Notes under the pieces: generated by a model
Database searches by the model: none
What the model was told of the DNA's origin: nothing
Seen by the model: the letters and a program-made list of their open reading frames with translations, nothing else
In this document: piece after piece, positions 12,983 through 56,800 of the stretch
How the letters are laid out: each line of letters begins with the position of its first letter
How positions within the stretch are numbered: position 1 is the first letter of the stretch
Position numbers and translations under genes: made by a program
Source of the DNA: Botrytis cinerea B05.10
Taxonomy: Eukaryota > Ascomycota > Leotiomycetes > Helotiales > Sclerotiniaceae
Assembly (NCBI RefSeq): GCF_000143535.2
Contig: NC_037312.1
Location: 1,736,001 to 1,800,000, forward strand
Direction: 5' to 3'
DNA length: 64,000 nucleotides

Positions 12983-13647
12983 GGTCGAGGATGCTGTTCG
13001 TATTTTTTATTATAGACAATCTCGCATTTCAATGCTGCAATTCGAGTTACCCCGTTAGTCTCCGAGTTCCACACAGATGATTTGTACCGTTTTCCTCATC
13101 TGACTGTGGAGATTTTGTGCACTCAGTCTCCTGTTAGAAAGGCAAAAGCATGAATGGAATTGTAGGAATTGTAGGAATAGTAGGAATTGCAACTAGTATG
13201 ATAGAACAGGACAATTGCGTTTATGTAAACCATAGAGCTTGACCCAGACGTGACAGATATCAACCTAGGAGGAAGCCCAAGAAACCGACCCCCGTATATC
13301 ACTGTTACCCCGCGTGCCCGGCAGAGGATAATGCAGATCTTCTGTACAGGATGAAAGAGCTAGTCTTGAAAGAGTATAAAATGTTCAAAAATAGTCAATT
13401 TCTATGCCTTTAGAGGTATGGCCTAGCTCAATAGCAGTCTAGTCCCTTTTTGACCCCTCCCCACCTTGAGCTACCGATAAGTAAGTCATATTACCACATC
13501 GCAACGCATTGACAATCTCAAAACCCCTCGAGAGTAATTAGTGCTGCTCGCTGTCGTGGCGTCCCGACCCGCAGTAACAGAAAAGACAACCCTTCCTTCA
13601 ATTGTAATCGGAACGACAATTCAAGTGAGGTCAACCACCCACAAACT
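12983..13647. other. Intergenic with a short tandem microrepeat
   Basis: Downstream flank of the fusion hydrolase and promoter of the Zn2Cys6 gene. A GGAATTGTA-type 9-mer is repeated about four times at 13157-13189. No gene seen. Confidence 0.45.
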
Positions 13648-15998
13648 ATGGATAACACCAATGAAGCTAGAATCCAAGCCATCCGTCCTCACAGTGTCCG
13701 GCAACCCATCAGCTGTGAGCCGTGTCGTCGACGCAAAATCAAATGCTCACGCACCCGCGTTCCCTGTGAGACATGTCGTCGAAGGGGATGTGCAAGCAGC
13801 TGTTTTTACAAAGGTTCGAGGGAATACATGCAGTATAATAATAATAGTTCCACGTTCAACAAGGAGCTTCTAGACCGCGTTGCTAGTCTGGAGATGCAGC
13901 TGGAGAAATATACTGGAGCTAATATTGATGCGAATTCAAATGTGACCGGGAAGCAGAAAGAAGATAGGGATGTGCGTAATGCTATACTCTCACCTCCCGC
14001 AGAACCTACAGCTGCAATTTCCCCATACAACGCGATGCCCGAATCGACGTCTTCATCCTCGACGAGCCCCCCGCCGCGACATTCGCCCCCCCTTCCGCGA
14101 AACACGGGCATCTTAACTACCCTCCCTAACGGGAATGTACATTACTCGCCCCGAATCTCGCAATGGAACTCTGTACTCGTGGATACCGATCTCGAAGTTG
14201 AAGTGCCTTCCTTGGATGAGATAGAGAATTCCTTTCCAATTGACAGTGGATTTCCATTCTCCGCATCCTCGGTCTCGATCGATGGGTTGCTTTCAATGTT
14301 GCCACCTACGCGCCAGTGCACGTATTTGAAGGATATGTACTTTTCGGTGTTGTCTCCTGTAAGCTTCACTTGATGGTTTATACTTTAAACACAACAGTTG
14401 TGGAAACGATTTTAATGAAATTTATGAGACATAAATAGTTATTCCACATACTACATGACCCAACATTCCACTCCCAGTACCAGCAATTTATAGAGGATCC
14501 AGCCTTGACGTCGCCGTCCTGGCTAGCAATTCTGTTTGTTTTACTGGCTTTGGCTGTGACGACTCTGGATGAGAATGATCCTATCTTGCGCGACTTGGGA
14601 CGGGGCACAGATTCTTACGCGAATATAAGAGTGCTGGGGAAGCGGTATCGAGAGGGGGCGATGCAGTGTTTGGGGAAGCAGGGCGTGTTCTGGGGGCATC
14701 ACAATGTACAGTCACTTCAGGCGTTAATTTTGCTGATCTATGCGATGAACCATAACCAAGATCCAACTTGGACTATTTTAGGTGAGTGCATTTCCAGAGT
14801 TCACAACCTGGTGAAATTTTGAGATAAGTGCAGAAATCAGATGCTGATATGCGTTCAGGCACTACGTATCATGTAGCAATTGCCCTGGGCTGCCACATTG
14901 ATCCTTCAATTCTTCATCTCGACCCCATCCAAAGCGAAGAGCGTCGTCGCTGTTGGGCTGGACTGAGGATGCTCTATACCATCCAAACTACCGCCCTCGG
15001 AAACACCGAATCCTTTTGGACGTGCAAAAACACCGTCCGTCTCCCCGCCGACGTAAACGACACCGAAATCACCCTCACTGATATCCAAACCCCTCTCCCT
15101 GGCCCAACCCAAATGTCGTATTTACTCTTCAAATTTCAGCTGTATGATCTCGCTAGCGCTATTTGTAGAGAAACATTCACTTCCTCCATACCCAGCGAGC
15201 GCACCATCAAAGACCTCGATACACAAATTTGTGACGTGCAAGAACTCTGGGACAAGCGATACGCGTTGCATTCGGCACGAGGACCGCTCCCAACACACCA
15301 CGTCGTACATCTGCATATCCTGTACGGGTATTCGCACCAGCTATTTCTGTTGCTGCACCGACCTTTTTTCGCACAATCTCTGCTGGGCCTTAACCTAGAT
15401 GTTCCCAACGACTCGCAGATTCGGTGTCTAGCAAGCGCTGAGGCCCTCCTGGATATTCACCGCACACTGGTAGAGACTCCCGCAAATAGACCGTATATGT
15501 GGTACACACGGGGTCTGGGAAGCTTCCATGCATTTCATGCGGCGGTGGTACTGGCGGTAGCGCTGTTGATGCCGGTTTATAAAGCGCAATATGAGAGATT
15601 TAGGGAGATGCTGGAGGGAGCGTTGGCGAGGTTTGAGGGAATGGGGGCGAGGAGTCGTGTGTGTAAGAGGGGAGCGAGGATTTTGAAGCACTTGCTGTAA
15701 GTAGAATTAGAGCATTTGTATTTGTGCATATATGAAGGGAACTGATGATAATGAAGGGCAATGCCGTCTCCAAATCGAACACCGATGGAGGCAGTTCGGG
15801 AGCAGGAGTGGGATTCAAACCGCTTGAAAGGTTTTGCGACGAAGCTGCAGGCTGAACAGTGGTTAGGGCCGGACAGTATGGATTGGGTAAGTTTGATAAC
15901 GAGATGTGATGATTTTTGTGTGGTTAGTTAAGATTCGTACTGATGTTTGTTTATAGAATGGATGGGGTGACCTTATGACAGATGTAATGGTGGACTAA
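13648..15998 (+). CDS. Zn2Cys6 fungal-specific transcription factor
   Basis: Five exons: 13648-14358, 14439-14781, 14859-15696, 15757-15886, 15957-15998, about 687 residues. The binuclear zinc cluster is at residues 23-52: CEPCRRRKIKC, then CETCRRRGC and a last Cys in ASSC. A short coiled-coil-like stretch follows (LLDRVASLEMQLEKY). The middle has the fungal_trans region: FHILHDPTFHSQYQQFI, TTYHVAIALGCHID and EERRRCWAGLRMLY. The last two exons end in KLQAEQWLGPDSMDW and a short acidic tail. Intron 2 has two possible acceptors (14840 or 14858); 14858 gives the more typical family sequence. Such proteins bind CGG half-sites and often control the adjacent pathway. Neighbouring hydrolase, transporter and amidohydrolase genes are candidate targets. 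Confidence 0.88.
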
Positions 15999-35500: not shown

Positions 35501-37052
35501 CTCCTATCTACTACATGGCGGTCGTCAGCTCGAGGAGTTTTAAAATAGATTATAGACATAATTAAGGTTTGAAACAGGGCAGAGAGTGCCCAGTCCTTAT
35601 ATAACCAATTATCATACATAACATTATCTCTAAAAATTGGGCCCATGGCGTCAAACCGGCGAAATTGAGGGGCCGCAATGTGATCGTGGTCTTACGGAAG
35701 ATATAGGGATCAAACTCTGGTCGCCATCAATATCAAATAAAAGCCCTTGAATGTACATGGATGAAATATTTTCGGATTTAAAACGTCGATCTCCGTTCTA
35801 TGCAATGTAAAATATCAATACCAAGACTTACCTTATGTGATTTAGAGCGGTGAGGTGCATGAGTGGATACAGTATTCTCTGGGCATCGATCTTGCTTGTG
35901 ATACGCATGTGAAAAGCCATATAGATATCGAGGATCTTTAGGCGCAATGGTATTTTCTCTATCCGAACCGACACCGTTAGCTGTCTCCATCGATGCTATC
36001 TAAGAGGCATGTACCTGGTTGCTATCTGGAAACTGGAGTATCGATATCGGGGACGGTAGAGAAGTACCAGCATACATAGCAGGCCATAAACATGGACCTC
36101 AGGATGCACAGCCTAGTTTCGGAACCCATGTTGGATGGACTCTGATAATCGATATCAGGGACGGTAGAGAAATGCCAGCATATAGAGCTGGCCATAAACA
36201 TAGACCTCAGGATGCACAGCCTAGTTTCGGAACCCATGTTGGATGGGCTCTGACAATAGATATGGAGAGATGTACAGTACTATAGGTTGCGGGTCGTTCG
36301 ATGCAATATGCTTATAAGGGGGGGCGAGAATTCCTTTGAAAGCCGTGTATTAGTATGATTTAGCAGAACTACATGGAATGCACAACACACTCGTAGATTC
36401 TAAATTCTTTCAGGAAGAATAGAAATCGTCTACATAACTCTTTGCCAGATGGGTCCTGGAAGGATAAATGTCTAAGGACCATACCTTCTGAGCATCGTCA
36501 GTGGATGCATCGACTCACAGAAAGCTCAAATATTTCACATAGCCACATAGTTGCAACTATCATTTATACACCGCAAGAAATGACGAAAATTTTCAATGCA
36601 GGCCAAGTATTTATTAGATACACGATTTAAATGAACCGAGTGCAGGTAGCAGGTTGAAACACATTGTGATTTTTGAAAATCAGTTGTGAAACCGTATATC
36701 CACTGTTGAACTCAAATTGACATAATACCATGGCAATAATTCAATGTGATGAAGAGGAAGATAACGCATAATTTAATTTGTCGTATGAGGGAGGGGAGGA
36801 GAGAAAATTTGAAACATCGCTGTCTTCGGAGAACATAAACATGTAGAAGTCACTTTGTTCAACATGTAATGTGTTCGGCATGACAAACGCAGTTTAGATC
36901 AAGGGTTAGAGTCTTGTAAGCCCACAATGATTCGATTAATAGAATCATCTCTCGATCAGGCCATCCAGAGCCCATTGTAGGCATGAGTATCATAAAATAT
37001 TGTGGCTTGTTTAAATTCATTTGGGGTATGTACAGTGGTTGAGCCAAAGTCT
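32521..37052. other. Gene-poor stretch of 4.5 kb
   Basis: No convincing gene on either strand. Frames of 60-106 codons occur (for example 34111-34431 minus and 35057-35362 plus) without domains, signal peptides or consistent splice sites. It contains a 108-bp tandem duplication at 36041-36256. Remains of old elements are possible but not recognisable by eye. Confidence 0.45.
36041..36256. repeat. Tandem duplication, two copies of 108 bp
   Basis: TCGATATC starts copy 1 at 36041 and copy 2 at 36149. The copies differ at about ten positions, mostly transitions, and share the long identical core from CCTCAGGATGCACAG to CCATGTTGGATGG. Because 108 is divisible by 3, the duplication keeps frames open on both strands; there is no evidence that it is translated. 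Confidence 0.85.
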
Positions 37053-38240: not shown

Positions 38241-41200
38241 ATGGCGGGAGCGGCAGCAGCAGTGGTGCTTATGGATGGGGAGCCTTCCCGTAGTTTAGCT
38301 ACTTCTGAAGACGATGCTGATTTTGAGGAGGATGACGACATGGTTCCTGACATAATCAATGAGGACGCGAATGCATATGCTGCTAATATTCAATTACAAA
38401 ATGGGTTGATTGGGGATCACAGCGATCTAGAGGATGACAGAGAGGGACCGGAAGGAGAAGAGGATATGTTAACAGATGAAGATGCAGATGGAGAGGAGGA
38501 CGACGAAATGCTTGACGGGCCAGACAACATGGATCATACTGAGGAAGAAGAGGCAGATGAAAACCGAGAGCTGGGTGAAGGAGATGAGGATGACGACGAT
38601 GCGGAGGGAGTTGGTGCAGTCAAAATTCAGCCTGGCTTAGAGGATGACGATGATGAAGACGCAGAGAGTGGCTCCGATAGCGACAGCTCCGTGGAAATTG
38701 AACAAGATGACGAATCTAAGGGCTCTAGCGATGTCGAGGAAGAAACACGATGGCAATCTAATGGGGAAGGTGAAGAGGAAGAGGAAGAACACGTAAATCC
38801 GAATCGCTGCATGTATGTTTCTCTTCTTTTCCTCAACTTACAGTCTTCAACTTACTCATAGCTTCTTAGATTCTGCGAGCAAGACGAGGACGATGATCCG
38901 AGTGAAGAATTCGAACTTTATCTGGCATGTGAGATGTGTGGAGACAATGGTAAGTTGACCCAGTATTTATAATCGGTAAGGCTGACAAAGCTGTAGCGCA
39001 TCGGCAATGCGCCCGAAATTCAAATGCGCTCAAGTCTGACGAAGGTATGTACTGTTCCGTCATACAGAAATGTATAATGCGGCTAAAATAAATTCCAGAG
39101 GCGGAAAAATGGTATTGTCCAGGATGCCACGAAAACAGTCTCGTGCCCGGAAGTCCAAGTGCAGATGTCGATATGCTTGAAGGCCCAGAGGAAGAAATAG
39201 TGGAGGCAGTCGGTCAAGAGGGAGATGGTGTAGAACTTCTTGATGAAGATGCATCAATAGCGGCCAAGAGGAGAATATCGAGGGACAGAGTTCCAGGGGA
39301 CCTATTACCGCCAAGACGTGGTACAATCAAATCAGATTCACACTCCGTCTTCGAACAACTAATACCACCAGAAGATCCCATGGATGGCTCACGTTTGTTG
39401 CGTAAGAGAAAAACTTCATCCGTGGAGGCTGATGAGGGACTAGTTTTGAGAAAAAGGACTCGTGATCGAGATGTACTTCCCGACAATTCCAAACCATCAT
39501 TTGACGAACCACATGATGAAGCCAAAGTCGACAACGATAGCAACTTATCATTGACTAACGGCAAAAGGAATAAGAAGAGGGTAGATACGCCTACAAGCCC
39601 GCGTGTTTCAAGATCCTTACGTCAAAAGACTTCTTCATCTTTAGGTCCGCCAGTTAACATTGTCGAGAAAATACCTGGCACTCTCAAAATCTCCTTTCGT
39701 GTTGATCCTATGGAGTTGAGGCATATTCTCTCAATACCCCCTAAACCAAAAAAGAAACGCGGTGGTCGTGGCGTCTCAAAGGCTCGATCCACAGCTACTT
39801 CTACCGCTCTTGTCCCCTCGAGCTACTCACAACCTTTCTACCCCTCCATTCACGAGAAAGAATTGGAAGAGCTGAAATCCAAACCTTACGGTGGCATTCT
39901 TTCCGAAGCTGACGCTGATACATCTTTGACACTACCTAGAGCAGAGCATCGGCGTCAATTTGAAGATGCTCGTCAAACGGCTGAAGAGGATTGGAAAGCA
40001 AGGGCAGCGGCTGCGGCAGAAGCTGCTGCCAAGGCAGGATTGAGAAAAGCACGCAAGGTGTCAGGTCCAGCCAGCCAAATTGAATATATTGATTTTGGGG
40101 CATATCAAATCGATATTTGGTATGCTGCTCCATATCCAGAAGAATATAGCCGGAATAAGGCACTTTTCATATGTGAGTTCTGTTTGAAGTACATGGAGTC
40201 CGATATTGTTGCTTGGAGGCATAAAACGAAATGCCCATGGAAGCATCCTCCTGGCGATGAAATATACCGGGATGGAAAGATTATGATTTTCGAAGTGGAT
40301 GGCCGCAAGAACCCACTGTACTGCCAAAATCTTTGTCTCCTAGCAAAGCTCTTTCTCGGATCGAAAACTCTTTACTATGATGTCGAGCCTTTCCTTTTTT
40401 ATGTCATGACAGAATATGACGAACTGGGTTGTCACTTTGTGGGCTATTTTTCGAAGGAGAAGCGACCTAGCAGCCTCAACAACGTCTCATGTATTCTCGT
40501 ATTGCCTATTCATCAACGAAAGGGATATGGTCACCTGCTCATCGACTTTTCGTATCTTCTCACTCGCGTTGAGAAGAAGACTGGCTCTCCTGAGAAGCCA
40601 CTTTCGGATATGGGTCTAGTCTCTTACCGTAATTACTGGCGACTCGTTCTATGTTATTACTTACAAAGATTTCAGCCCTCTGAACGTGTTCCAAGTATCA
40701 AGGCTATTTCTGACGAAATGGGTTTAACGCCAGATGATGTTATATCTGGCCTTGATGCCATGGGCACTCTCGTCCGCGATCCAACAACTGGTACCTATGC
40801 CATGAGATTAAAGCCGGATTACTACAAAGAGGTTATTTGCCATCATGAAGCAAAAGGGTACGCTAAACTCAATCCTAAAAGGTTGGTCTGGACGCCTTTC
40901 GTCATGGGTAGAGGTAATGCTTCTGCTTATGATCATGCACCGCCACTTAACACGGTCGCACCACGCGAGGAGGACGAAGACGAAGTACCCAGTGTTGAAG
41001 GCATATCTAATGGAAGTGTCCAAGGCACATCTTTGAACGGTCTTACGAATGGTGATACAGAAGAAATGACAGCATCGTTAGGCAAAATGACCACCGGGGC
41101 TGGTGAAGTCATTAGAGTTGCAAGTTCAGAAGGTAGTGTTGGAAAGTCAGCGATGACGCAAAAGCTCAATGGTATGACCAAAAAGTCATACTATGATCTT

Positions 41201-41914
41201 GCCTCCTCGATCCCGGCTATACGATTTGTTGTGTTTCCTCCCTTGCCTGGTGCTCGAAGTCGAACCGTCTCACGCCCAACCTTAGCGCGACCATCCTCAC
41301 GTGCAAGAATATCAACCTCTTCATCTGCTCGGCCCAAATCTCGAAGGGCGGTAGGCGTGCCTATTAGACGTGCATCCACTACATCTGCATCTGCTTCAAA
41401 GGCGCGGACTGCAGCGCGTAGAAAGAGCGGAGGTACAGGGCGTGGGCCTGGTAGATGGCCAAAAGGAACCAAGAAGAGCGATTTTGGGAATGCGGAGAGT
41501 GGTCCTGGCTTGCCACCTAGGTTGTTGAAACAGCGCAGTAAGCTGGGAAACGAGGTAATGCTTGGCGACGAAGAGGAAGAGAATCAAGAGACAAGAAGTG
41601 ATCTCGATGAGTCCGCAATCTACGATACTCCCGCGCCGAGATCGAGACGAGATCGAGATTTGTCACGCAAGGGTGCCGGACTAGGCAAGCCTATTCTCTT
41701 GGGTAAAGGCAAAGGAGCAGGGGTAGGAAAAGGCAAAGGCCCTCTTGTTGATGCGGAAGGCGATCAAGAAATGGCTGATGTACCAGTTGACGAAAGTGAA
41801 GTTGATTGTAACGCGGATGTAAATCAAGATGCCAACATAGACCCAAATCTTGATGCGAACCCGATTCTGGGCGTAGAAGGAGAGGATTTGGATGCAGAAG
41901 GTGAAGATGAATAG
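38241..41914 (+). CDS. SAS3: MYST-family histone acetyltransferase SAS3 (PHD finger plus MYST)
   Basis: Four exons: 38241-38812, 38870-38949, 38997-39044, 39099-41914, about 1171 residues. The first 190 residues are acidic. A PHD-type zinc finger follows across three introns: CIFCEQDEDDDP, CEMCGDNAHRQCA, then WYCPGCHEN. The MYST domain (about residues 560-850) has the C2HC finger CEFCLKYMESD...HKTKC (near 592), YDVEPFLFYVMTEYDELGCH, the acetyl-CoA loop QRKGYGHLLIDFSYLL (near 710) and SYRNYWRLVLCYYL. The C-terminus is Ser/Arg- and Gly/Lys-rich and ends acidic. Yeast Sas3 is the catalytic subunit of NuA3, acetylating H3K14 and H3K23; the built-in PHD finger matches animal MOZ/MORF and filamentous fungal forms. 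Confidence 0.95.
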
Positions 41915-43192: not shown

Positions 43193-44081
43193 CTAACTGG
43201 CCTCCAACAAGCTCAAACTCTTGAGTTTAGATAGGTTCCATCTTGCTTCGATAAAGTACAGTTTTGAGTCTTTTGGCTGTTCCATTCCGATGAAATCAAA
43301 ATTCTCATCAGCATTCTTGAGCAATATCTTCCATTCGTCAAGGTCTCTTTCTTTTGCATTGAGAAGCTCAGCCATCGCAAGGCCCATAGATCTGATCAAG
43401 AAATTGTATGTTAGCACGAAATAATCAAATTTATGAAAATGCATTATACGCGCCGGATCAACCGCTCCTTATATTTTGAGACGGAGCCAGGTGGTGGAAC
43501 GATGTATTCCGCGATGACAATTCGAGCGCCAGGCTTTAATTCTGGGATTAAGCGTTGGAGAATCTCGATACAGTACTTGTCAGAGTGATTATGGAAAATC
43601 GCAGCGGAACAGATAGACATCGGCTCCCATAACAGGCTGCTCAGTAAAGAAGTCGTGGATCATGAAAGTCACCCTGTTAGATATATCTTGCGACACGGAA
43701 ATAGATGCTTGATCCACGGCAACCGGAAGATCCTGACTGGTAAAATGAAGCCTCGGAAAGCTATTTGCAAGAGCGATACTGACTTCTTCAAGAGAACCGC
43801 CAACATCGACGAAAGTTCTGATGGAATCCCACCATATGAACGCATCAACTATGTGAGATGATTCAAGGCCAACTTCTCTATTCACCATAGCCATAGCGTT
43901 ACTAAACCTCTTGGCTCAAAAAGGGTGTTTGCCTAGTTCCGAAAACAGCGTATTTTCGATGTTGCTCGCAATCGCAAAGCCCTGGTGAACGTAAATCAAG
44001 ATCTTTTGTACTCGCAGTAAGAAAAATTACCGTATGATCAGGCTCTTGTGATCCCGGCCATTTGACCATCGCATCAACAGT
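43193..44081 (-). pseudogene. COMT-type O-methyltransferase relic
   Basis: The minus strand carries a recognisable SAM-dependent O-methyltransferase (Methyltransf_2) in broken form. In order: VKWPGSQEPDHT, a normal GT-AG intron, GFAIASNIENTLFSELGKHP, an in-frame TGA, AKRFSNAM, the SAM-binding motif FVDVGGSLEEVSIAL, HFTSQDLPVAV, GADVYLFR, and the C-terminal LNAKERDLDEWKILL and YFIEARW. Lesions are the TGA, a one-base frame change near 43600, and an intron near 43440 whose phase does not fit. The N-terminal third is missing; the opposite-strand tyrosinase relic begins there. Relatives methylate hydroxyls of secondary metabolites. Confidence 0.85.
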
Positions 44082-44239
44082 CTTGAAAAAATGTATGTTA
44101 GCAGATATTTAGCCATGTTCGCAGGTAGTTGAAATCAGCTGGTGGAAGCTCACAAGAGATGCAGCAACTTGAATTGCAATAGTTACAAGTTATCGGATTT
44201 CTGGACTTTGGGAATCATACATGTGAACTGTCTTCGTAG

Positions 44240-45052
44240 CAAGCCATCCATGCTAGGAATAACCACTCACAATACGATGATTTTGGCTACTCGCATATTC
44301 AGATTGGCGACTACACACATGAAATTGCCGGGTTCCTGTCCTGATATCGTTATTTTGTTCACATTTACGAGCAGGCTTTGAAAGGTCAATACAACTACAC
44401 TGAATATCTATCTTACTGGGACTGGGAGTTAGACTGGTCAGATATCGAAATATCACCAATCTGGGACAGCGAGGACGGGTTCGGGAGCGATGGAACGGGG
44501 GATCCCAGTGTAGGGGAAGGGAGATTTGTTATCGATGGACATTTTACAAACATGAAACTTTTCTATTACGAAGATAGCTAACAAGAGCATTGTTTATCTC
44601 GTGGTTTTCGACATGGTTCAGAGAAAGATCAGTTCGTTACTTCAAGATTCCATCCTTCATCTCTTCAGAAAGCATTCAACTCCCCTGACTACAGAGGATT
44701 TAGTCTTGCCTTGGAAGATGGTGCACATCGTGATATACCTGTAGTCTTGCTGGGAGAATTTGGAAGTTTTACATCCCCTAATGGTTCGTGTACCCAAGAA
44801 AGTCTAAATCTAATTCTCGAAGACTTGCATATTAATTATGTCACAGATCCGATCTTTTTACTTCATCATACAAAAGCTGATCGCTTATGGTGGGAATGGC
44901 AGAAAGTTGGATCTGAAAGAAGGCTCAGAGACTACGGTAGACAGGCAGATACAATTGAGTCCAGCAGAGAAGCTTCGATCAATGACCTTCTTCACGTCGG
45001 TGGCCTGGGACGAGCAATAGCTGTGTCGGATATAATGAGCACGGAGACATAA
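44240..45052 (+). pseudogene. Tyrosinase (common central domain) relic
   Basis: One frame (after TAG at 44237) carries tyrosinase landmarks in order: SQYDDFGYSHIQIGDY, the copper-A segment HEIAGFLS followed by an in-frame TGA at 44342-44344, YRYFVHIYEQAL, YLSYWDWELD, FVIDGHF, a TAA at 44579-44581, HCLSRGF, LEDGAHRDIP, FTSPN, and copper-B DPIFLLHHTKADRLWWEW. It ends at TAG-type stops around 45052. Two stops in the same frame, without any frame change, show recent loss. Secondary-metabolite tyrosinases of this size act in dikaritin pathways (UstQ, PhomQ). The 5' end is unclear. Confidence 0.88.
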
Positions 45053-45109
45053 ATACTGTGTTACATTTACTAAGTCCAATAATTCATGCCAGATGAGCAG
45101 ACTATACAG

Positions 45110-46008
45110 TTAAATTTCTCCTAAGAAAGACTGGTTTTTGAGACTGCTCATTTCTTCATCGTCAACTATCCGTCGCTGTATCTTAAGCCGAAGATCTTCC
45201 CAAATAACGCATGTATGTTTCGGTACATCTAATTTCAGCATCGGTTTATCACTCTTTGGACTCCACTCAAATGTCATTAATGAAGTGTCTGCATGACAAA
45301 TAATTGCTTGTCATAACAGCTCAAAACAGTGATCTAAAGATGTTAGAAGTGTTCCACAATTAGAGAAAATAGATTCAAACCTGCATGCAGAAGCAAGTGG
45401 GCTTCCTTGTCTCTCGAAACATCGGGAAAGTAGTGCTTGTGGTATATGGCTTGCCTTAAAAACTTCTAATGGGGTTTCAAATTAGCAAGAGGGTAGATCT
45501 ATGCCGTGCAGGTGATACAGACTACACAACGAAATTGATGAAAAGCCTCAAACCATACAAGGTGGTCTTGTCCATCCGACAATGGAAGAGATGTCTGTCT
45601 GATTCTTCCTCTCAAGCTCCCTCTGAGAGACTCGAATGTTTATTCCGGAGAGTAAGTCTTGCCACGCGTTATCCAAGTCTTTATTGGGTGCCCCAGCGTA
45701 AACACTGAACTCAGCAAGCTCAAAGTACTGTTGATTTACCCAGGGTTCTTCTTGATCGAAGCCTGGAAAATGATCAGCTCGCTATTTAGCTCCGTTGATT
45801 GTCTTGGAGTCCACATACTCATTTCAGTTAGGAGGCTTCTACCCTGAGAAGTATAAGATTTCAAACATAAGAAATTCGCCAAGGAATATAGAAGAAAGGC
45901 ACATAGGTGTAAGCCAATAACTCTGAGATAATTTTGCTTTTCTTTCTTTCGACCTCCAGTAGAAAGAAGGAACGGCAATGAATCCAACTCTTCGTCACCT
46001 AGTTCCAT
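45110..46008 (-). pseudogene. UstY-type (DUF3328) oxidase relic
   Basis: Start MELGDEELDSL at 46008, then one helix (YLRVIGLHLCAFLLYSLANF), SMWTPRQS, and the UstY block FSVYAGAPNKDLDNAWQDLL followed by INIRVSQREL. The two catalytic HxxHC-type motifs follow: HQFRC (45540-45526, second His replaced by Arg) and DHC (split by the intron 45380-45334), with the family's C-terminal FEWSPKSD and HTCVIWEDL. Lesions: a frame break near 45740, a 4-bp tandem duplication (GACA) breaking the frame at about 45591-45601, and TGA at 45313-45311 at a conserved position after the second motif. Two in-phase GT-AG introns remain (45525-45466, 45380-45334). UstY proteins cyclise dikaritin peptides in the secretory pathway. 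Confidence 0.85.
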
Positions 46009-46420
46009 TGATTTCTGGGTTTTACAAAATGGAAAATAGTTTAAGGTCTTCGGAATGATGCCTAACATGTTCAGATTTGAGGGTTGTCGGCAAACGCACA
46101 GGGAGTGAAGAATTGTGTAATATGCAACAAGCACGAAATCATATAGGCTAACAGTTGAAGGGGTGTAGCTGCGGGGAGATAATTAGGGATTCTCATCAAG
46201 AGTTTGCTGATTCTAGAGTGTTTTTTTGTTCGGAATTTTCGTCATATGATTGCATGTAGAACCGCAAACACTAATTCCTTAAAAACAAAAAACATACAAA
46301 GATTGTCGAAAATCCCACCTAAAGCTCTCGATAGACATTCAAATCCTAGTTTCACAAGGTCTCTGAAATATCAAGATACTCGTCCCAACTCAGATTTAAC
46401 ACACGCCGCTCAAAGTCAAG

Positions 46421-46828
46421 ATGTTTTTCATGAAACTTACGGTCCTTGCAATCCTCCTAGTTGGGTTCTGTGCCCCAATGAAGTCTTCTAGTGTGTACCG
46501 CATCAAGCTTCACATATTTTAATCGAAAAATCTACTAACCAACCCTACAGCACTTGCTAGAGATACCCATAAAGCCGACGAGAGCGTTGTCTACCCAGAC
46601 TATCGCAGATCGACTAGTGACGAATCTGTCGTCTATCCGGAGTATCAAAGAAATGCACCATCTAACGACGATAAATCCATCATCTATACCGACTATCGCC
46701 GATCAGTTAGTGACGAGTTCGTCATTTAGCCCGATTACAGTAGAGAAGTGGTGGGCAGAGATATTGACGCTGCAAAAGAGGATGGTTCTGTAATTTACCC
46801 AGATTATCTCCGAGATATTGATTATTAG
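46421..46828 (+). CDS. Small secreted repeat peptide, candidate dikaritin-type RiPP precursor
   Basis: Exon 1 46421-46490 encodes a signal peptide (MFFMKLTVLAILLVGFC). A 60-bp intron with CTAAC branch site and CTACAG acceptor follows, then exon 2 46551-46828. Exon 2 holds five spaced copies of a nine-residue unit: SVVYPDYRR (46583), SVVYPEYQR (46625), SIIYTDYRR (46676), a copy starting FVI with TAG at the first Tyr position (46727-46729), and SVIYPDYLR (46787). Spacers are acidic. Signal peptide + repeated short core + dibasic Kex2-type sites is the layout of fungal UstA/PhomA-type precursors, where each core is cut out and cyclised. Two Tyr per core suit UstY/tyrosinase chemistry. The stop removes the last two copies; three would still be made. 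A longer open frame (46554-46793) is the wrong frame. Confidence 0.6.
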
Positions 46829-47756
46829 ACGGTTATAATTGGCTTCTATGTTTATATTATAGCATTATACAGTTTAAATCCCTGTTACTGTTACTTCCAA
46901 GGTTGTGGGGATTTATTATCAAAGATTTTTTTAAAGCCGGGGATTGTGGAGAATTGATCTTAGCTACAGTTACCTGTTTGATATTCTCTCATTCTTTATT
47001 AGTATAGCCCATTAGTTTCATCTATCTTAAAGCACAATAACAACAAATCTTATCATGCAATTGAGCGGCGCGAACCGCAATGGTGTGTTGTATAATGCCC
47101 ACATCATCTCCGCAGTGGAACGTTCAATCACCTATCATGACCGAATACGATACGGAGAAATGGGGCGCAGTCGCGCAGGATTGATAAAAGCCAGTTGAGC
47201 TGCAAAATTCAGACCGTAAGAGGTGATACTCTGTAGGCGAGCACAAGGTAGAAGTGTGGAAAAACCCGCCACCCACGGAGCAACAGATGCATCAGCTGGA
47301 TCGATTGCAACGTCGCGATGCAGGATGAATTAGATCTTGTAGATGAAGGTAGCACCTGTGTAGTGCAGTGCCAAACAACCGATCAGTAGCCTAGCGCAGT
47401 AATACCCAGTAATAATATCTAAGCGAAAGTGGAGCAAGACGCCACAAATATCTAGAGGGCTGTATTGACGTGATTGGGTAAAGCTCACGACGGGGTGGCG
47501 TGCTTCCTGATATTTCCCCGACTCCTCATTTTGTTAGTAGCAGCTTGTGAGAAGAAACTAATAAGGTAGTGTGATGAAGATTGAAAGTAGCGCGCCCCAT
47601 ACACATTGCGCGATGTACTGACTTGACCCGACAGTGTGGTTCAGTATGCACCTCCAGATACGAACAAGCAAAAATGATTGGGAGGCTTGTGGCCAGTTAT
47701 ATTGCAGCAGTATATGGGGCTAACCGGGTGTTTCGGCTTTTACGTGCCGATGTTCT
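46829..47756. other. Intergenic, no gene seen
   Basis: AT-rich at first, then 47040-47560 is somewhat more GC-rich without any supported gene. The frame at 47581-47817 runs into the fold-back element and is not credible. Confidence 0.4.
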
Positions 47757-48152
47757 CTATGGTGTGTTTTTGAGACAAAAAGTAACAAAAACCAACTTTC
47801 TTAGTGTAAATTACTAGTTTTTTAATATAGATTGCTACATTTTTAGTATATATCACTCATTTTCTATATAGATTACTAATTTCAGATCCAGATTACAAAT
47901 TTCAATTATATAATCGTACAATCACAAAATCGCAAAATCACACTAGTATTTTTTTTAGAATTTCCAAAAAAAAAAGGGTTTAAAATATCTATAAAAAAAA
48001 TTATTAGTGTAATTATACGATTATACAATTATGCGATTTTATAATTGAAATTAGTAATCTGGATCTAAAATTATCAATTTATATTAAGAAACCAGTAATC
48101 TATACTAAAAAGTTGGTTTTTGTCACTTTTTGTCTCAAAAACACAACTATAG
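47757..48152. mobile_element. Fold-back / MITE-like palindromic element
   Basis: The two ends are inverted copies: left CTATGGTGTGTTTTTGAGAC..., right ...GTCTCAAAAACACAACTATAG, sharing about 60 bp including the GACAAAAAGT.ACAAAAACCAAC core with few mismatches. Inner parts also pair (left 47878-47945 with right about 48000-48065), so nearly all of the 396 bp forms one large imperfect hairpin around 47965. It is extremely AT-rich with no coding capacity. No clear target duplication was found. Confidence 0.75.
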
Positions 48153-48372
48153 TTCTTTTCAAAATTACAATGTTGTAGTCGGATGTATGGTTCGCTTCCA
48201 GGTCTGTGTGTTTTTAAAAGTCGCCCCCACAGGTGATCTAATCTAGTGCAATAGTACGAGATTGTCATGCACCCCATATTGAGATGGTATTCAACGGCAC
48301 GCTGTCTTCACAGAATGGAACAAATCCAGAAGGAAAGATTGAAAAGGTCAGAAGCTATCTTCTAGGTATTAA
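48153..48372. other. 3' flank of the P450 gene
   Basis: Short non-coding gap between the fold-back element and the minus-strand P450 stop codon. Confidence 0.4.
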
Positions 48373-49875
48373 TTAAAGTATCAATCCAACCTGGGCGCCG
48401 TTCTTGCTCACGGTTGTTACCCTCCAACGATCCACAAATTCCATCACGGGATCACGATTCTGAATAACCTTGAACTTTTGCAGGATCCTGATGGTAGTTA
48501 TCGCAATCTGGGTAACGCCAAGATCACTAGCCGGGCACATTCGTGGCCCAGCCCCAAAAGATAAATTTATCCAACGATCAGGTTTGAAATCACCTTCCCA
48601 TCTCTCAGGACGCCATATTTCAGCGTCTTCCCCCCAAAGATCCTTTCGTCGAGCCATTGACGCGAACCAAAGTACAACCTTTACACCTTTTTTGACAAAA
48701 ATCGGAGAGCTTGCATTTGGCCCTCCTCCTGTTGGAAGGACTGTATCGCGAAGGGCAATGCGCTCATTGGCACTCACACCGGGATATAGTCTCATTGTCT
48801 CATTAATGACACAGTTTAAATAGCTCAAGCTCTTCAGAAGTTTCGGAGTGAGTTCTGCAGATCCAATAGCTGTTATCTCCTTTTGTAACTTTGCCCACGC
48901 CTGAGAGTTGCGTGCTAGATTAAAGAATATATTCGTAAGAGGCGTCGCGATGGCATCGTGGACTGGAAGGAATAACCCCAAAAGCTCATCTCTAATCTTC
49001 ACTCGATCTTGACCTAGATCTGCTAGTCCGTATGCCACCGAGTATTTTTGTTTCTCGCTGGCCGATACGGCTTTGTCCATTACTTTGTCAAGTATTTTAT
49101 CGACAAAATCTTGCGCATCTTTGCATGAAGACCAGAACTTCGGATCCCGAGATAGAAAATCCCAGAATGGCAAAACCATTCTCATACCTACACCTTGTAG
49201 AGAGTAATTGTAGGCATCTAGAAATCTCATGGCATCTACTGGAGTCTCTGGCAATAGGGTCAATGTCGACTCTCCAAATAAAATTTCAGAGGAGCTATCC
49301 AGTGCTAGACGGTCAAAAAGCGGCTGTAGATCAACAGTGGAGCCATCTTCAGGAATCAATGCCAAAAGCCGTGCAACGTGTTGCTCAAACATGTGCTGGT
49401 GGTGTGTGGCTTTTGCAAATATTGGAGTGAGCACAGAACGATGAGCCTTCCACACAGCACCGTCTGTGGACATTAAGCCGTCGCCTGCCAAAGGTTTTAA
49501 ACCAAAAGATCTCATCGGACCGACTCCAAAAGATTCGAAATCTGTTCCATAGATAGCTTTGACGTGTTCCGGTGCTTCAGTAACTATTTCAGCAACGCCA
49601 TACGGAAATGATTGAAATGTATGGCCATATTTTGAAAAGAGACTTCTGGCAATTGTATCACGCGATTGCTTTTCATATGTTTCCGTGAACCGGCCGTAGA
49701 TTATATCAAGCCCAAAGAATGGGTCTTTCTGAGGAATTGATCGCGGTGGCTGGCATCCCTTTCGCAATCGATTGGTGCTTATGTGATTCGTTAGAGCACG
49801 AATTGTAAGTAGGAGAACTGCGCAGAGGAACAGCAATGAAGGATAACTGATATAGAATATAGTGTAAAGTGCCAT
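48373..49875 (-). CDS. Cytochrome P450 monooxygenase
   Basis: A single intact exon of 500 codons. An N-terminal membrane anchor (YPSLLFLCAVLLLTIRAL) precedes a Pro-rich hinge. The heme-binding loop FGAGPRMCPA places the iron-ligand Cys at residue 447. ExxR is present as ETMRL and the meander as RPERWEGDFKPDRW. The I-helix reads LFLPVHDAIATPLTN, with HDA in place of the usual GRDTT oxygen-activation stretch, an unusual form. It resembles fungal CYP52/CYP63-like membrane P450s in overall pattern. No introns, unlike most neighbours. It is divergent from the DHA2 transporter across a 639-bp gap and sits beside the decayed RiPP-type genes; a tailoring role there is inference. Confidence 0.9.
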   Translation of the reverse strand: MALYTIFYISYPSLLFLCAVLLLTIRALTNHISTNRLRKGCQPPRSIPQKDPFFGLDIIYGRFTETYEKQSRDTIARSLFSKYGHTFQSFPYGVAEIVTEAPEHVKAIYGTDFESFGVGPMRSFGLKPLAGDGLMSTDGAVWKAHRSVLTPIFAKATHHQHMFEQHVARLLALIPEDGSTVDLQPLFDRLALDSSSEILFGESTLTLLPETPVDAMRFLDAYNYSLQGVGMRMVLPFWDFLSRDPKFWSSCKDAQDFVDKILDKVMDKAVSASEKQKYSVAYGLADLGQDRVKIRDELLGLFLPVHDAIATPLTNIFFNLARNSQAWAKLQKEITAIGSAELTPKLLKSLSYLNCVINETMRLYPGVSANERIALRDTVLPTGGGPNASSPIFVKKGVKVVLWFASMARRKDLWGEDAEIWRPERWEGDFKPDRWINLSFGAGPRMCPASDLGVTQIAITTIRILQKFKVIQNRDPVMEFVDRWRVTTVSKNGAQVGLIL

Positions 49876-50514
49876 AGTTAAAATCTCGGTATTGATTTCA
49901 AGTAAAAAAACAGCGACGGTAGAATTGAGTGAAAAGCTTCAAAGACTCTGACCGTTTGAAGTAGAATTTTTGGGGGGATCGTAAAGTATCCCAACTTTGG
50001 GCAATCTCTCGGTTTATTGTGGATAGCATAGCCTTGCAACCACCAGACCTTTACCAAAAAGCGAACTCATAACTACCCGGCAGCTACAATACCCAACAGC
50101 GACAAGTATTAGCGCGGAAAATGGATGCAACATAAGCAGCCAACAACTATCAGGGATGTGCAGAAATCTATGACCACTAAATTTCACAGGGGTGGCGTAA
50201 GCGAGTGTACATACCAACATAATGGAAGGATTAAACAATTCTAATATTCTAATTTTGTACGGATCAATTAAACCATCGTGATTCGACAGGTGTGCCGATT
50301 ATTTTATATCCGAAATCGAACAATTTTATGAACAGTTCCAAGTGTTGTAGGTGTTCACCTAATATCTTTCGGCTTTAATGCGAAACAAGTGCAATACCAA
50401 GTTCAAGAACCAGCTAATAACCTTTGGTCTCAGAAGTGAACTTAATTGTTGTAACGAAACGCTTTCATCGGAATCCGACAATATTACTCTTTCTTCTGAA
50501 TCTCAAAAGACGCT
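49876..50514. promoter_or_regulatory. Divergent promoter region of P450 and DHA2 transporter
   Basis: 639 bp between divergent start codons. The minus-strand frame at 50014-50238 has no family features. Shared control of the two genes is plausible. Confidence 0.4.
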
Positions 50515-52371
50515 ATGACACCTTCACCAGTACTTTTGGATGAGGATAGCTCGACCAGAACATCGGAGAGCCCACAGCTTGTTGGAGGTTCTGCTACTGA
50601 AGCCGGAAAAGTACCCGAGAAGGAAATATCTTCTGCCAATGCCATAGTCGAAAGAAATAGAGATACTGTAGCGGAAAGCTCTACTCGAACAATCAATGGG
50701 CTTTCCTGGATTCTAGTGGTGGCTTGCATCTCATCGTCGACCTTTTTGTTCGCGATAGACAACACTATCGTCGCCGATATTCAGACGGCAATTGTCGAAG
50801 AATTTGACGAAGTGGGGAAGCTAACATGGGTTTCGGTGGCTTTCATGCTGGGAGCCGCTGGAACAAATCTAATGTGGTAAGCAGTTAAGATCATGTGTAC
50901 ACAACCTCGTACTGACATGTATTGGTACGCAGGGGAAAAGCATATGGTACATTCGACGCGAAATATGTCTATATATTCACAACCTTAATTTTCGAGGTCG
51001 GCTCCGCGATATGTGGAGGCGCTCCCAACATGAACGCTCTCATTGTCGGTCGAGCTATATGCGGACTAGGAGGAATAGGAATGTATATCGGTGTCATGAC
51101 TGTGATGTCGGAGAATACATCAAAGACTGAGCGGCCAATATATCTTGGATTGATAGGTGTAAGTCGACTAGATTGAACTTTGATTTCCAATATGCTAATC
51201 TGGAATGATCGCAGATACTCTGGGGTATTGGCACCGTGTGAGACTCAATGACATTCCAAATTTCACACAAAGCTGACATATCCATAGGGTCGGTCCTTTT
51301 ATAGGAGGGGCTTTTGCTGATAGTAGCGCCACATGGCGATGGGGATTCTATATCAACCTTTGCATCGGAGGAGCTTTTGCTCCTGTATACGTATTTCTCA
51401 TCCCAAACTCCAAACCCCGATCTAACTTGAGCCTTCTTGGTCGATGGGGTCAAATTGACTGGCTAGGTGCTTTATTCCTCTTGGGTGCCATAGCATTCTT
51501 GCTGATGGCCATTGCCTTCGGTGGTGTATTATTTCCATGGAATTCTGGATCTATCATTGGCCTTTTCGTTACCGGAGACATTCTGTTCATTGCATTAGCC
51601 ATTCAGCAGTCATATGTAATGGGCACAACGGAGGAACACAGATTGATTCCGATAGAATACCTTCACTCAAAAGAAATAGTCATTTTATTCATTGAGACAG
51701 CCTGCGCTGGAGCAGCAGTGTTCCTTCCAATATACTTCATTCCTATTTTCTTCGAAATCATCCACGGCGAGTCTGCATTAGGCTCAGGTCTCAAACTCCT
51801 CCCATTTATTTTGGTCATGGTTACCATGACTTTTGTCAATGGTTTCACACTATCAAAATGGGGCTACTATATGCCTTGGTATTTTGGATGCTCTGCTCTC
51901 CAAGTCATTGGTTCTGCGCTTCTCTATACTATTGAAAGAGATACTTCTATTAGTGCCATCTATGGATATACTGTACTCATGGCATTTGTCGGCGGTTGGA
52001 GCCAGGCATCATTTACAGTTGCTCAATTCCTTGTCGCTCCCAAAGACATTCCGATTGTGACTGGTTTCTTGACGTGTGCCCAGTCAGGTGGAGCAGCGCT
52101 ATCACTGGCAATTGGCGACACTGTCTTCCTGAATACCGCACAGAGTGGTATAATGACTCTCCTTCCAAATCGAAACTCATCTGAAATTCAAGGACTCATC
52201 TCTGGTTTGGGAAACTCATTCTTTGAAACTTTAGATGATGATATACAAAACGCTATTTTGGACATCATCATGAGCAGCTTCAAGAAGCTTTTCGTCCTTC
52301 CCATTGCTGCCGGAGCAGTAGCGCTTTCCTTTTCAGTCTTTTTGAAAAGGCAGAAAATTGACGTCTCTTGA
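50515..52371 (+). CDS. DHA2-type MFS efflux transporter (14 TM, toxin-pump-like)
   Basis: Four exons: 50515-50876, 50933-51158, 51215-51237 (23-bp micro-exon), 51288-52371, about 564 residues. A polar N-terminus of about 65 residues precedes TM1 with FLFAIDNTIVADIQTAI, the DHA2 form of the LDxTIVNVALP motif. VGRAICGLGGIGMY and the antiporter motif GPFIGGAFADSSATWRWGF follow, then many further helices; the spacing suits 14. The family exports fungal toxins and drugs; UstT and PhomT of dikaritin clusters are MFS pumps. The frame is intact, in contrast to the broken neighbours at 43-46 kb. Confidence 0.9.
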
Positions 52372-53877: not shown

Positions 53878-56800
53878 CTATGGGCTTGGGCCTCCATCAG
53901 GTAAAGCCGGCAAAGGTTTTTGCTCATTAATTTGCTCGTTAACATGCTCTTGTGTAGGTGTTAGAAGAGACCGAGATTCTCTGATATCATCAACACTTTG
54001 CCCTTCCAATGTATCGTGTTGAATACTCGTGGGCGTAGAGTTCAGCTCATCCATGGGGTCGTGACTCTCAATATCACTAGGCGGGGGGCTAGCCAAAGCA
54101 GTAGGGTTTCTATCTCTGACGCCCCTTTCTTTCGCATCTGAAACCGACAGGAAAGAGGCAGGCGAAGAATTATGAGATCTAAGCGAAGGTCCAAAAGACG
54201 AGGTGCGAAGAAGTTCATGTTCTCTCGATGCAGATAGCAAGGGGTTAGAACTTTGGTATTTCATAGTGATGCTTCTGCGAAGTCGAGAAAAGGTACCAGT
54301 TGTTGCTCCGGTCATGGTATTGGTGGTTGTTTCGTCAAATGAACGTGGAGGAGTCAACTCGTTGTCAGAGCGGGAATATGTTGATATGGGTGTTGGAGGA
54401 CCCCAACCTCTTGATCGGGAGCGCGAGTTGACAGATTCATCCGAGGGCTGACGTCGATGATGGCCGGACCACGCATTTACGGGAGAAGCTGCGTCACCGA
54501 TGTAATCTTCGCGTTCCCGAGAGGTGTAACCCGGCGTATCGAGTGGGCTTTCTATATTAGTCATGTTGCTGGTTACACGGGAACGTCGATTATGGAGAGA
54601 GAAGCTGAGAGGCTCTGCAGTAGAGACACGAGAGAAAATCACGAGGCCAAGACACAGAAGAAGCAGTACAGATTGGATAATAGACATGCGCTTTTGAAAG
54701 ACAACTTCATCTGCTAGGATGTTGAGACGAGCACTAATAGCCAAAATTTCTCGACGGGATTCTTCTCGTTGACTTTCAAGTGAAATAACAGTCGATTGCC
54801 ATATTTCATCGTATTGTTGACGAAACACGCGTAGTTCGGTAAGAACTGTGCTATTGAGATTTTCGAGGAAATCAGTTGTCTTTTGAAGTTGCCTTTTTTC
54901 GACTCTCAGAAAGGCTTCTCGTAGCATCTTTGATTGCTCCTCAATATACTTCAATGACAAAGTTGAGTTGGTTTCCAACAGCTGCAGGCGTCTTGACACA
55001 GCCTTAAAAAAGCTCTCTTGAATTGTGGGAAGAGAGGCGGATCCAGAAGAAGTGTTTGTACCTCGGGTCTTGTTTGTACTTGTAGCATCTTGTGATTTGT
55101 TAACTATAATAGTTGTCGAACTTGTCGGGATAGTTGAATGTGAGCTGTCCTGAATTACCTTGGAAGATTCATGGGCCTCTTGGGTAAGTGACGTGCTTGC
55201 TAGGGATGCTTTAACCTCAGATAACGTTTGCTGTGCGGAAGGCCCGGTGAAAGACAGTGATGAGGATGTGATCCCATTATCTGTAAAGGCAGTAGAAATC
55301 ATTTCAGGTGATGGTGGAACTTTCATAGTAGTCTTGAAATTATATGACTCATTCTCCACCGCGGCTTGACTGGTGAGAATATGTTCCGGGGTATCTGAAG
55401 GATAGCACAAGTCTAGAGGTCGTATAGAGAGCATTTCAAATTCTCTGGCTATAGGCTTTTTCCAAAGAGAAGTTGGTGTTGGCGGTGGTTTAAGGTGTGT
55501 CTCCATTGGCATTTCTTCCCTTTGAACGTCTCGAGTAGTATATAATCCTGTAGGCTCTGTCTGGCTACCCACTGTTACATGCACAGCTTGCATTACAGTC
55601 GATTTCGTCTGAATGATTTCTGCTACAGCTTCTGGAACAAATCCTTCTTCAGGATCCTCATCCGCTTCCTCGTCGTCATCATTGTTAGCTTCAGTATCCT
55701 TCCAACTTTCAAGCATGCGAGTACCATGAACCCTCACGAGCGAGAGTGGGCAATAATACTCCTTTCCGTAATGTGTCAAAAATTCGATGCGTATATACCT
55801 TGCCCAAATTTGCGGATTCTCTATTAGAAAAGCTTGTATTTCTCGCGAGTTGCGAGCCTCATAAACACCCAAATCCTTCCACTTATCAGTCTTCACAGGC
55901 CATCGATCGCTAACACTGACTCGAAATGTTCTCAACATGCTGGAGAAGAATTCATAATTCGCAAGAACTAGAGTGTCGATCCATATATCTTCCTAATGAT
56001 TTGTTAGTAATGTGATTTCTGCTGCGGGGAAGCACAACTCCTACCGAAAGCTCAATGACTAAAAATTTGTTCTGTGTTTTACATTCCGAAAGCATATAGG
56101 AATCCTTATTCTCTATCAACACAGCTTTTGAATTTTTTGCACCTTGATGGGTCTTTAGAACAGTAGCTCCGGCATCAAATGATGCATAGGAAAAACGCTC
56201 TTTGCAGGTCTTGCCAGCATCCTTACTTCGGTGTTCCTTTCGATGCCCAGAACCACTTTTCTCTTCTTGTGAATCCTGATTTGAACCCACGCCTTTATCT
56301 TTGGTCGTTCTTGAGGTTTGCTCAGCCCCCCCATTCCGGAAAGCGCCAAAGTCCAAATCAATTTCCCCATCATCTCCCAGAGATTCAAGATTGTTTTGAA
56401 ATGCTTCCGACTCTCTTTTCCTAGCCGCTTCCGCGGATCTTCGCTTGCCCAGATTCAAATCTTGCTGCCCAGCTTGCTCCAATGTTTGTTTCTTCCACTC
56501 TTCGAATGACAAGAATGAGGCATCATTAAGCTCTCCTTCATCGACAGTAGTCGGAGATGCCGTAGGAGACGGTATGCCTGGAGATGGGCTGGACGATTTA
56601 AGCTGAATGACGGATGTACGACTTGTTTCGTCCGTGATTTTAGTTTCGTCATTTGTTTGGGCAACAGACTCGCTGAAAGGTGCATTCGATATTGTGTCCG
56701 TTACAACATCAATTTCCTGGCTTTCGAGAGTTCCAGCTGCACCAATAGCATTTGTCTTTGTAGTTGGCGGAGAGTCCGTATTACTCCAAGATGAACGAAG

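What the first reader, a model, noticed from the sequence alone, without database searches (positions are those of the whole stretch)
43193..52371. Decaying dikaritin-type (UstY) ribosomal-peptide cluster
Within 9 kb lie an O-methyltransferase relic, a tyrosinase relic, a UstY/DUF3328 relic, a signal-peptide-bearing repeat precursor, an intact P450 and an intact DHA2 pump. Repeat precursor + UstY + tyrosinase + methyltransferase + MFS is the set known from ustiloxin and phomopsin clusters (UstA/UstY/UstQ/UstM/UstT and Phom counterparts). Three biosynthetic genes are clearly broken here while the pump and P450 are intact, suggesting recent loss, possibly with retained export or self-protection. 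Seen: the domains and lesions. Inferred: that they once formed one pathway.
Basis: partly seen in the sequence, partly recalled or inferred. Interest (0 to 1): 0.9.

Follow-up and report, generated by a model that had tools for sequence, protein, structure and literature searches.

The report
Decayed fungal cyclic-peptide gene cluster
The reference grey-mould fungus carries the wreckage of a small gene set for a gene-encoded, probably ring-closed peptide; a relative keeps matching parts apparently whole, and so does a genome labelled as the same species.

Summary
The window is chromosome 3 of Botrytis cinerea B05.10: its precursor is BCIN_03g05260. Between a MYST acetyltransferase gene and a SUN-domain gene lie relics of an O-methyltransferase, a tyrosinase and a UstYa (DUF3328) protein, plus a truncated signal-peptide repeat precursor with core [VI]Y-P-D-Y-RR. 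The grouping is not accidental: in Sclerotinia nivalis the precursor homologue (OCU04_006956) and a full-length tyrosinase homologue (OCU04_006958) are two locus tags apart, the same order with one gene between. I read it as a dead UstYa/tyrosinase-type RiPP cluster. (2) The loss does not look recent: the relic tyrosinase has 21-23 private changes against 1-3 in its intact homologue, and other B. cinerea entries share the relic form. (3) P450 and pump are intact, but membership is unproven; species distribution argues against the P450, two paralogues beside other UstYa genes argue weakly for it. The core is not of ustiloxin/phomopsin type. Most interesting: a full-length tyrosinase exists in a genome labelled B. 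cinerea, so intact and dead versions may coexist.

The parts
43193..44105 (-). O-methyltransferase relic (PF00891), spread over several frames; N-terminal part probably absent (inferred)
   Evidence: Pfam matches in 43447-43656 and 43592-43912; best paralogue 47% identical at C15:1103811. The outer pieces have no methyltransferase match in Pfam; 43905-44105 is assigned only by a weak resemblance (about 19 bits) to two paralogues at the fitting place, 43193-43465 only by position.
44223..45070 (+). Tyrosinase (PF00264) relic; corresponds to residues 98-380 of an apparently intact 380-aa homologue; first 97 residues, with a hydrophobic anchor-like stretch, absent; frame change near the new 5' end; internal stops; one histidine of the first copper site lost
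   Evidence: copper-ligand assignment recalled from the family
45113..46008 (-). UstYa/DUF3328 (PF11807) relic; N-terminal and middle parts in different frames, altered first histidine motif, internal stops
   Evidence: nearest paralogues among the loci compared C2:3168k (40-44% identical) and C15:1398k (36-37%); limits read from sequence, motif recalled
46421..46490 (+). Precursor exon 1: start codon and signal peptide
   Evidence: sequence; matches the annotated 82-aa BCIN_03g05260
46491..46550 (+). Precursor intron, GT...AG with a CTAAC branch-like site
   Evidence: sequence; agrees with the annotated protein
46551..46729 (+). Precursor exon 2: three repeats ending in Y-[PT]-[DE]-Y, then a stop inside the fourth
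   Evidence: 2 dibasic sites preceded by similar segments, against 4 in the S. nivalis homologue
46730..46828 (+). Remnant of the repeat array downstream of the stop
   Evidence: tblastn of the S. nivalis precursor runs 46421-46822 in one frame
47763..48145 (.). MITE-like inverted-repeat element between the relic block and the P450 gene (not part of the cluster)
   Evidence: 37-nt terminal arms, 97% complementary; 77 matching pieces genome-wide, its own included
48376..49935 (-). Intact cytochrome P450 (PF00067), membership in the cluster uncertain
50503..52371 (+). Apparently intact DHA2-type MFS transporter with introns, membership in the cluster untested

Best explanation
This is the dead remnant of a small UstYa/tyrosinase-type ribosomal-peptide (RiPP) cluster, consisting at least of precursor, UstYa and tyrosinase and probably the head-to-head methyltransferase. 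In the living form (inferred from family knowledge) the secreted precursor would enter the ER/Golgi, Kex2 would cut after the dibasic RR that follows each [VI]Y-P-D-Y repeat, the membrane-anchored UstYa oxidase and tyrosinase would cross-link or oxidise tyrosine side chains, and the methyltransferase might methylate the product. In B05.10 the pathway cannot run: the tyrosinase has lost its 5' end and a copper-binding histidine and carries stops, UstYa carries stops and probably a frame change, the methyltransferase is split over frames, and the precursor is cut short with most cleavage sites eroded. P450 and pump are neighbours whose membership is undecided. Shown: the domains, the lesions, the S. 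nivalis tag adjacency, a full-length tyrosinase homologue elsewhere. Inferred: cross-linking chemistry, order of events, that the methyltransferase also lost its 5' end, and a common promoter between it and the tyrosinase.
For: Pfam domains in relic frames. Precursor homologues in S. nivalis (97 aa, four regular YPDYRR repeats) and B. aclada (98 aa, irregular). Relic-only against intact-only changes 23:3, 21:3 and 22:1 with three outgroups. No credible match in the window to residues 1-97 of the intact tyrosinase. Stops in the UstYa frames.
Against: The gene between the two S. nivalis tags (OCU04_006957) was not seen; that it is UstYa is inferred. No methyltransferase tag was seen in a relative, so its membership rests on position. 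The methyltransferase is PF00891; its kinship to PhomM was not tested. No DNA of any relative could be read. Frame changes could in part be introns. No expression or product data.
Confidence: 0.85

Rival explanations
1. One reading: a six-gene pathway including P450 and pump, lost recently, with the pump and P450 kept for export or self-protection.
For: P450 and MFS are adjacent and intact; 2 of 17 paralogous P450 loci in this genome lie close to UstYa genes, C6:915-918k and C2:3168-3172k (my count from the tables, about 0.2 expected by the 10-kb reckoning).
Against: P450 homologues of 87-90% identity in B. byssoidea, galanthina, paeoniae, porri and Botryotinia convoluta, none of which appears among the 7 tyrosinase hits; no S. 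nivalis or B. aclada name among the 120 listed of 196 P450 hits. A MITE-like element separates the two halves. Decay looks old.
Confidence: 0.2
2. The truncated precursor still works: an 82-aa secreted protein releasing one or two unmodified Kex2 peptides after loss of the modifying enzymes.
For: Signal peptide, intron and three repeats remain open; it is annotated as a protein.
Against: Only two dibasic sites with a similar preceding segment remain, against four in S. nivalis; the homologous array beyond the stop is cut off.
Confidence: 0.08
3. Sequencing or assembly error, or introns mistaken for lesions: the genes are intact.
For: Some frame breaks in such fungal genes are introns, for example those of the MFS gene and of the precursor and an in-frame intron in the tyrosinase.
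Against: The tyrosinase lacks its first 97 residues in the whole window, has lost a copper-binding histidine and changes fast at conserved sites; another B. cinerea entry is 99% identical to the relic form.
Confidence: 0.02
4. Accidental neighbours: unrelated pseudogenes.
For: UstYa genes are common here (24 loci).
Against: Tag adjacency in S. nivalis; a UstYa gene 0.9 kb from a tyrosinase is unexpected by chance.
Confidence: 0.03

Closest known systems
Ustiloxin and phomopsin clusters (dikaritins)
   Same: Signal-peptide repeat precursor with dibasic sites, DUF3328 (UstYa) protein and tyrosinase close together; a methyltransferase nearby.
   Different: Core YPDY-type, without the Tyr...Ile pair of YAIG/YVIG; one UstYa found instead of two; no S41 peptidase match on this chromosome; no zinc-finger regulator in the neighbouring frames that were scanned; the whole block is dead.
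Asperipin-2a cluster
   Same: Core rich in tyrosine with a Tyr-x-x-Tyr spacing (FYYTGY there, YPDY here); a single UstYa-type enzyme.
   Different: The asperipin cluster as reviewed has precursor, aprY, a transporter and a reductase, and no tyrosinase (PMC6514808, passages).
Kex2-processed repeat proteins (KEPs) beside DUF3328 genes
   Same: This precursor architecture; Botrytis and Sclerotinia are listed among KEP-bearing genera (PMC7329392, passages).
   Different: Here truncated, with eroded sites. Whether this precursor is in that survey's tables was not checked.
Putative RiPP cluster of Sclerotinia sclerotiorum chromosome 3 (PMC6941272, passages)
   Same: DUF3328 genes with possible RiPP genes in a related genus.
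   Different: That one has a pair of adjacent DUF3328 genes and is co-expressed in infection; whether it is homologous was not tested.

Membership tests
Dikaritin RiPP cluster (ustiloxin/phomopsin) | Precursor with signal peptide and several core repeats flanked by dibasic Kex2 sites | tested here: met
   Met by the S. nivalis homologue (4 similar dibasic segments); the window copy is truncated with 2. Signal peptide judged by eye.
Dikaritin RiPP cluster (ustiloxin/phomopsin) | DUF3328/UstYa protein in the cluster | tested here: met
   PF11807 in relic frames; broken
Dikaritin RiPP cluster (ustiloxin/phomopsin) | Two UstYa homologues (UstYa and UstYb), essential for ustiloxin with UstQ | tested here: not met
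   One UstYa match in the window in the whole-genome PF11807 search; a second, fully eroded copy cannot be excluded
Dikaritin RiPP cluster (ustiloxin/phomopsin) | Tyrosinase (UstQ/PhomQ type) | tested here: met
   PF00264, relic and full-length homologues; direct kinship to UstQ/PhomQ not tested, their sequences were not at hand
Dikaritin RiPP cluster (ustiloxin/phomopsin) | Methyltransferase of the PhomM/UstM kind | tested here: inconclusive
   Methyltransferase present but PF00891; PhomM not compared
Dikaritin RiPP cluster (ustiloxin/phomopsin) | S41 family peptidase | tested here: not met
   Two PF03572 matches in the genome, on C7 and C10, none on C3
Dikaritin RiPP cluster (ustiloxin/phomopsin) | Zinc-finger regulator (PhomR type) | tested here: inconclusive
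   Nearest Zn2-Cys6 match 13513-14370, about 29 kb away; 24 of the 42 window frames of 130 aa or more listed were scanned
Dikaritin RiPP cluster (ustiloxin/phomopsin) | Core with N-terminal Tyr and Ile at the third position (YxI) | tested here: not met
   Core is [VI]Y[PT][DE]Y
Dikaritin RiPP cluster (ustiloxin/phomopsin) | Ether-cross-linked peptide product | not testable with these tools
   No metabolite data
Asperipin-type cluster | Tyr-x-x-Tyr core with one UstYa-type enzyme | tested here: met
   Spacing as in YPDY; core FYYTGY from PMC6514808 passages
Asperipin-type cluster | Isoflavone-reductase-like AprR and transporter AprT | tested here: inconclusive
   No reductase among the ten frames of the block scanned; an MFS gene starts about 3.7 kb beyond the precursor but AprT was not compared

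The most novel reading that the evidence does not exclude
The cluster is an old presence/decay polymorphism: intact and dead haplotypes coexist within B. cinerea or are exchanged with close relatives (balanced or introgressed), so that some strains make a secreted tyrosine-cross-linked YPDY peptide and others, including the reference strain, do not.
Probability: 0.3. Interest if true: 0.7.

Novelty: new member of a known kind. Interest (0 to 1): 0.45.

Why it matters
It supplies a dead/alive pair of a fungal RiPP pathway at a known place in a model fungus, together with relatives that carry apparently intact precursor and tyrosinase. That makes three things testable: which genes form the minimal UstYa/tyrosinase unit, what a YPDY-core product is and does, and whether the reference strain's chemistry under-represents the species. 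It also warns that gene models at this place (BCIN_03g05260, 'Tyrosinase 7' and similar entries) are annotations of relic DNA.

Tried and rejected
RIP (repeat-induced point mutation) as the cause of decay: composite indices of the 2-kb bins over methyltransferase, tyrosinase and UstYa are -0.72 and -0.58, within the window's range of -0.90 to -0.27; the bin with the precursor (46001-48000, part of the AT-rich element included) is the window's highest at -0.27, still negative. No second copy of the block was found. I hold RIP unlikely, not excluded for the precursor. Dead duplicate of a living cluster in the same genome: rejected, no second copy of the DNA or of the repeat was found. Relics as introns: accepted for some frame changes, rejected as a full explanation. 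Prokaryote, phage, viral and plasmid collections were not searched; I expected no fungal relatives there. Fetching the head-to-head methyltransferase/tyrosinase pair on C10 was not possible. An NCBIfam scan gave only matches far below the cut-offs. Solved structures gave hemocyanin, catechol oxidase and tyrosinase for the S. nivalis tyrosinase, and general P450s. Literature: no paper in the library holds any of six neighbouring locus tags, BCIN_03g05240 to 05290; Botrytis cinerea with UstYa and RiPP gave 2 papers, Botrytis with dikaritin 3, Botrytis cinerea with ustiloxin and gene cluster 33, of which 25 listed, Botrytis with DUF3328 7; further searches. I read only passages of PMC7329392, PMC6941272, PMC10971195, PMC9233826 and PMC6514808, nothing beyond the listing of the others, and no supplements; so I do not claim that the locus is absent from print.
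Full report
Where it is. The window is bases 1,736,001-1,800,000 of contig 3 of a 42.63-Mb genome in 18 contigs. The precursor piece matches 'BCIN_03g05260 [Botrytis cinerea B05.10]' at 100%, and the contig lengths seen fit the chromosome sizes tabulated for B05.10 in PMC10971195 (passage; lengths). The block sits between a MYST acetyltransferase gene (39092-41911) and a SUN-domain gene (53881-55992).

What is there. Minus-strand methyltransferase pieces at 43193-44105 (PF00891 in the middle two), plus-strand tyrosinase pieces at 44223-45070 (PF00264), minus-strand UstYa pieces at 45113-46008 (PF11807), and a plus-strand precursor at 46421-46729. The precursor has a signal-peptide exon (read by eye), a GT-AG intron and three repeats ending in Y-[PT]-[DE]-Y; a stop falls inside the fourth, and repeat sequence continues beyond it. 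Further on lie an intact P450 (48376-49935, minus) and a DHA2-type MFS gene (50503-52371, plus) whose frame breaks have GT and AG intron borders. An inverted-repeat element of MITE type (47763-48145) lies between the two halves.

How it is broken. An apparently intact 380-aa tyrosinase from a genome labelled B. cinerea (P0124) aligns to the window over residues 98-380, in two frames near the start. Residues 1-97, which hold a hydrophobic anchor-like stretch, have no credible match in the 64 kb; the best is a 26-bit, 31%-identical alignment with stops at the precursor stretch, E 0.014 for the N-terminal query alone, which I take for chance. The relic tyrosinase also has internal stops (one TGA and two TAA) and a histidine of the WHR motif replaced (its role as a copper ligand is recalled). 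UstYa has its N-terminal and middle parts in different frames, an altered first histidine motif (motif recalled) and several internal stops. The methyltransferase faces the tyrosinase head to head. Its Pfam-recognised part ends near 43.89 kb; the next piece towards the tyrosinase has no Pfam match and only a weak resemblance to two paralogues, and ends about 120 bp before the tyrosinase remnant. The reading I prefer, inferred and not shown, is one deletion that removed both 5' ends and the promoter between them. On C10 a methyltransferase/tyrosinase pair stands head to head with roughly 890 bp between points that are roughly 360 bp apart here (extrapolated by me from the match coordinates; the C10 DNA was not read).

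Relatives. The precursor piece found 3 proteins among 3 candidates: B. cinerea, S. nivalis OCU04_006956 (97 aa, four regular repeats) and B. aclada EAE96_003236 (98 aa, irregular repeats). The tyrosinase piece found 7 of 118 candidates at E <= 1e-5: a full-length 380-aa protein (ACHAO1_000512, 90%) and relic-type entries (133 aa at 99%; 190 aa at 85%, named 'Tyrosinase 7') labelled B. cinerea, an unnamed 196-aa relic-type entry, B. sinoallii (359 aa), S. nivalis OCU04_006958 (363 aa), and an unnamed metagenome protein (362 aa). This is the main evidence that the grouping is real.

Age of decay. Over columns shared by relic and intact tyrosinases, relic-only against P0124-only changes are 23:3, 21:3 and 22:1 with B. 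sinoallii, S. nivalis and the metagenome protein as outgroups. A pseudogene drifting freely beside a conserved homologue fits this. A relic-type entry at 99% identity, standing for three sequences, and a second relic-type entry labelled B. cinerea put the decay before the spread of those strains. 'Recent' is therefore not supported. P0124 is 86-88% identical to the relic pieces but 91-95% to B. sinoallii over the same columns; whether its source is true B. cinerea, a look-alike species or an introgressed stretch could not be tested.

P450 and pump. Against membership of the P450: homologues of 87-90% identity are named in B. byssoidea, galanthina, paeoniae, porri and Botryotinia convoluta, and more distant ones in Rutstroemia and Clarireedia; the five Botrytis/Botryotinia species were not seen with the tyrosinase, and no S. 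nivalis or B. aclada name is among the 120 listed of 196 P450 hits. Database clusters at 90% identity can hide species and many hits are unnamed, so this is not proof. For membership: of 17 other P450 loci related to it at E <= 1e-20, two (C6:915k and C2:3171k) lie within about 3 kb of UstYa genes, and the second lies by the UstYa gene nearest to the relic one among the loci compared (counted by me from the tables). I leave it undecided at about one in four. The pump was not tested in relatives.

Classification. In mechanism it works like a dikaritin: Kex2 repeat precursor, DUF3328 oxidase, tyrosinase (features from PMC6514808 and PMC9233826, passages). As a member of the ustiloxin/phomopsin family it fails three tested features (two UstYa proteins, S41 peptidase, YxI core), so I file it as a UstYa/tyrosinase-type fungal RiPP cluster and not as a ustiloxin or phomopsin cluster. 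The Tyr-x-x-Tyr core recalls asperipin-2a (core from PMC6514808), whose cluster as reviewed there has no tyrosinase.

Context in the same genome. UstYa genes occur at 24 loci (grouped from the 44 matches). I fetched and scanned 8-18 kb at 22 of the 23 others (all but C2:1697k); 4 of these 22 showed a Kex2-repeat precursor by a simple scan. That scan reports nothing in the window itself, whose precursor is too eroded, while the S. nivalis homologue passes it. Among the loci I had fetched, the relic tyrosinase pieces are nearest to the one at C15:1390k (40-53% identical), which has UstYa genes 3-9 kb away. With P0124 as query, an unfetched tyrosinase at C5:2281k scores slightly higher in a single match (192.5 bits, 45%) than the C15 gene (183.2 bits, 50%, split over exons) and has no UstYa match near it, so tyrosinase kinship alone does not point to UstYa loci. 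The fungus keeps several candidate RiPP loci and has lost this one.

Noticed in passing
L020:168-812(-), L024:5987-6574(-), L031:7512-7919(+), L033:2224-2439(-): Four other UstYa loci of this genome carry repeat precursors with dibasic sites (for example YPEDDYNTKR nine times, ELSYVNSKR in eight near-identical copies), candidate living RiPP clusters.
   Followed up: partly
L016 and L017 (C15:1389938-1399350): A tyrosinase with several UstYa genes 3-9 kb away, the nearest paralogous locus to the relic among those fetched; no repeat precursor found by the simple scan.
   Followed up: partly
47763-48145: MITE-like element with 37-nt terminal inverted repeats, 97% complementary, with many relatives genome-wide (77 matching pieces, its own included).
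   Followed up: partly
C10:376453-378229 (not fetched): A methyltransferase and a tyrosinase stand head to head, the same arrangement as in the relic, with no UstYa match nearby.
   Followed up: partly
C6:915184-918454 and C2:3168561-3172537: P450 paralogues of the window's P450 lie within about 3 kb of UstYa genes.
   Followed up: partly
P0124, P0128, P0129, P0130; L016:4238-4438(-): This tyrosinase subfamily has H-x-x-x-P where two other tyrosinases of the genome (L013, L015) have H-x-x-x-H at the second copper site, in 4 of 4 full-length homologues and the C15 paralogue.
   Followed up: partly
44784-44846: A 63-base intron of the tyrosinase homologues is free of stops and divisible by three, so some gene models keep it as coding sequence (borders read).
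   Followed up: no
36040-36263: 108-base tandem repeat, 2.1 copies.
   Followed up: no
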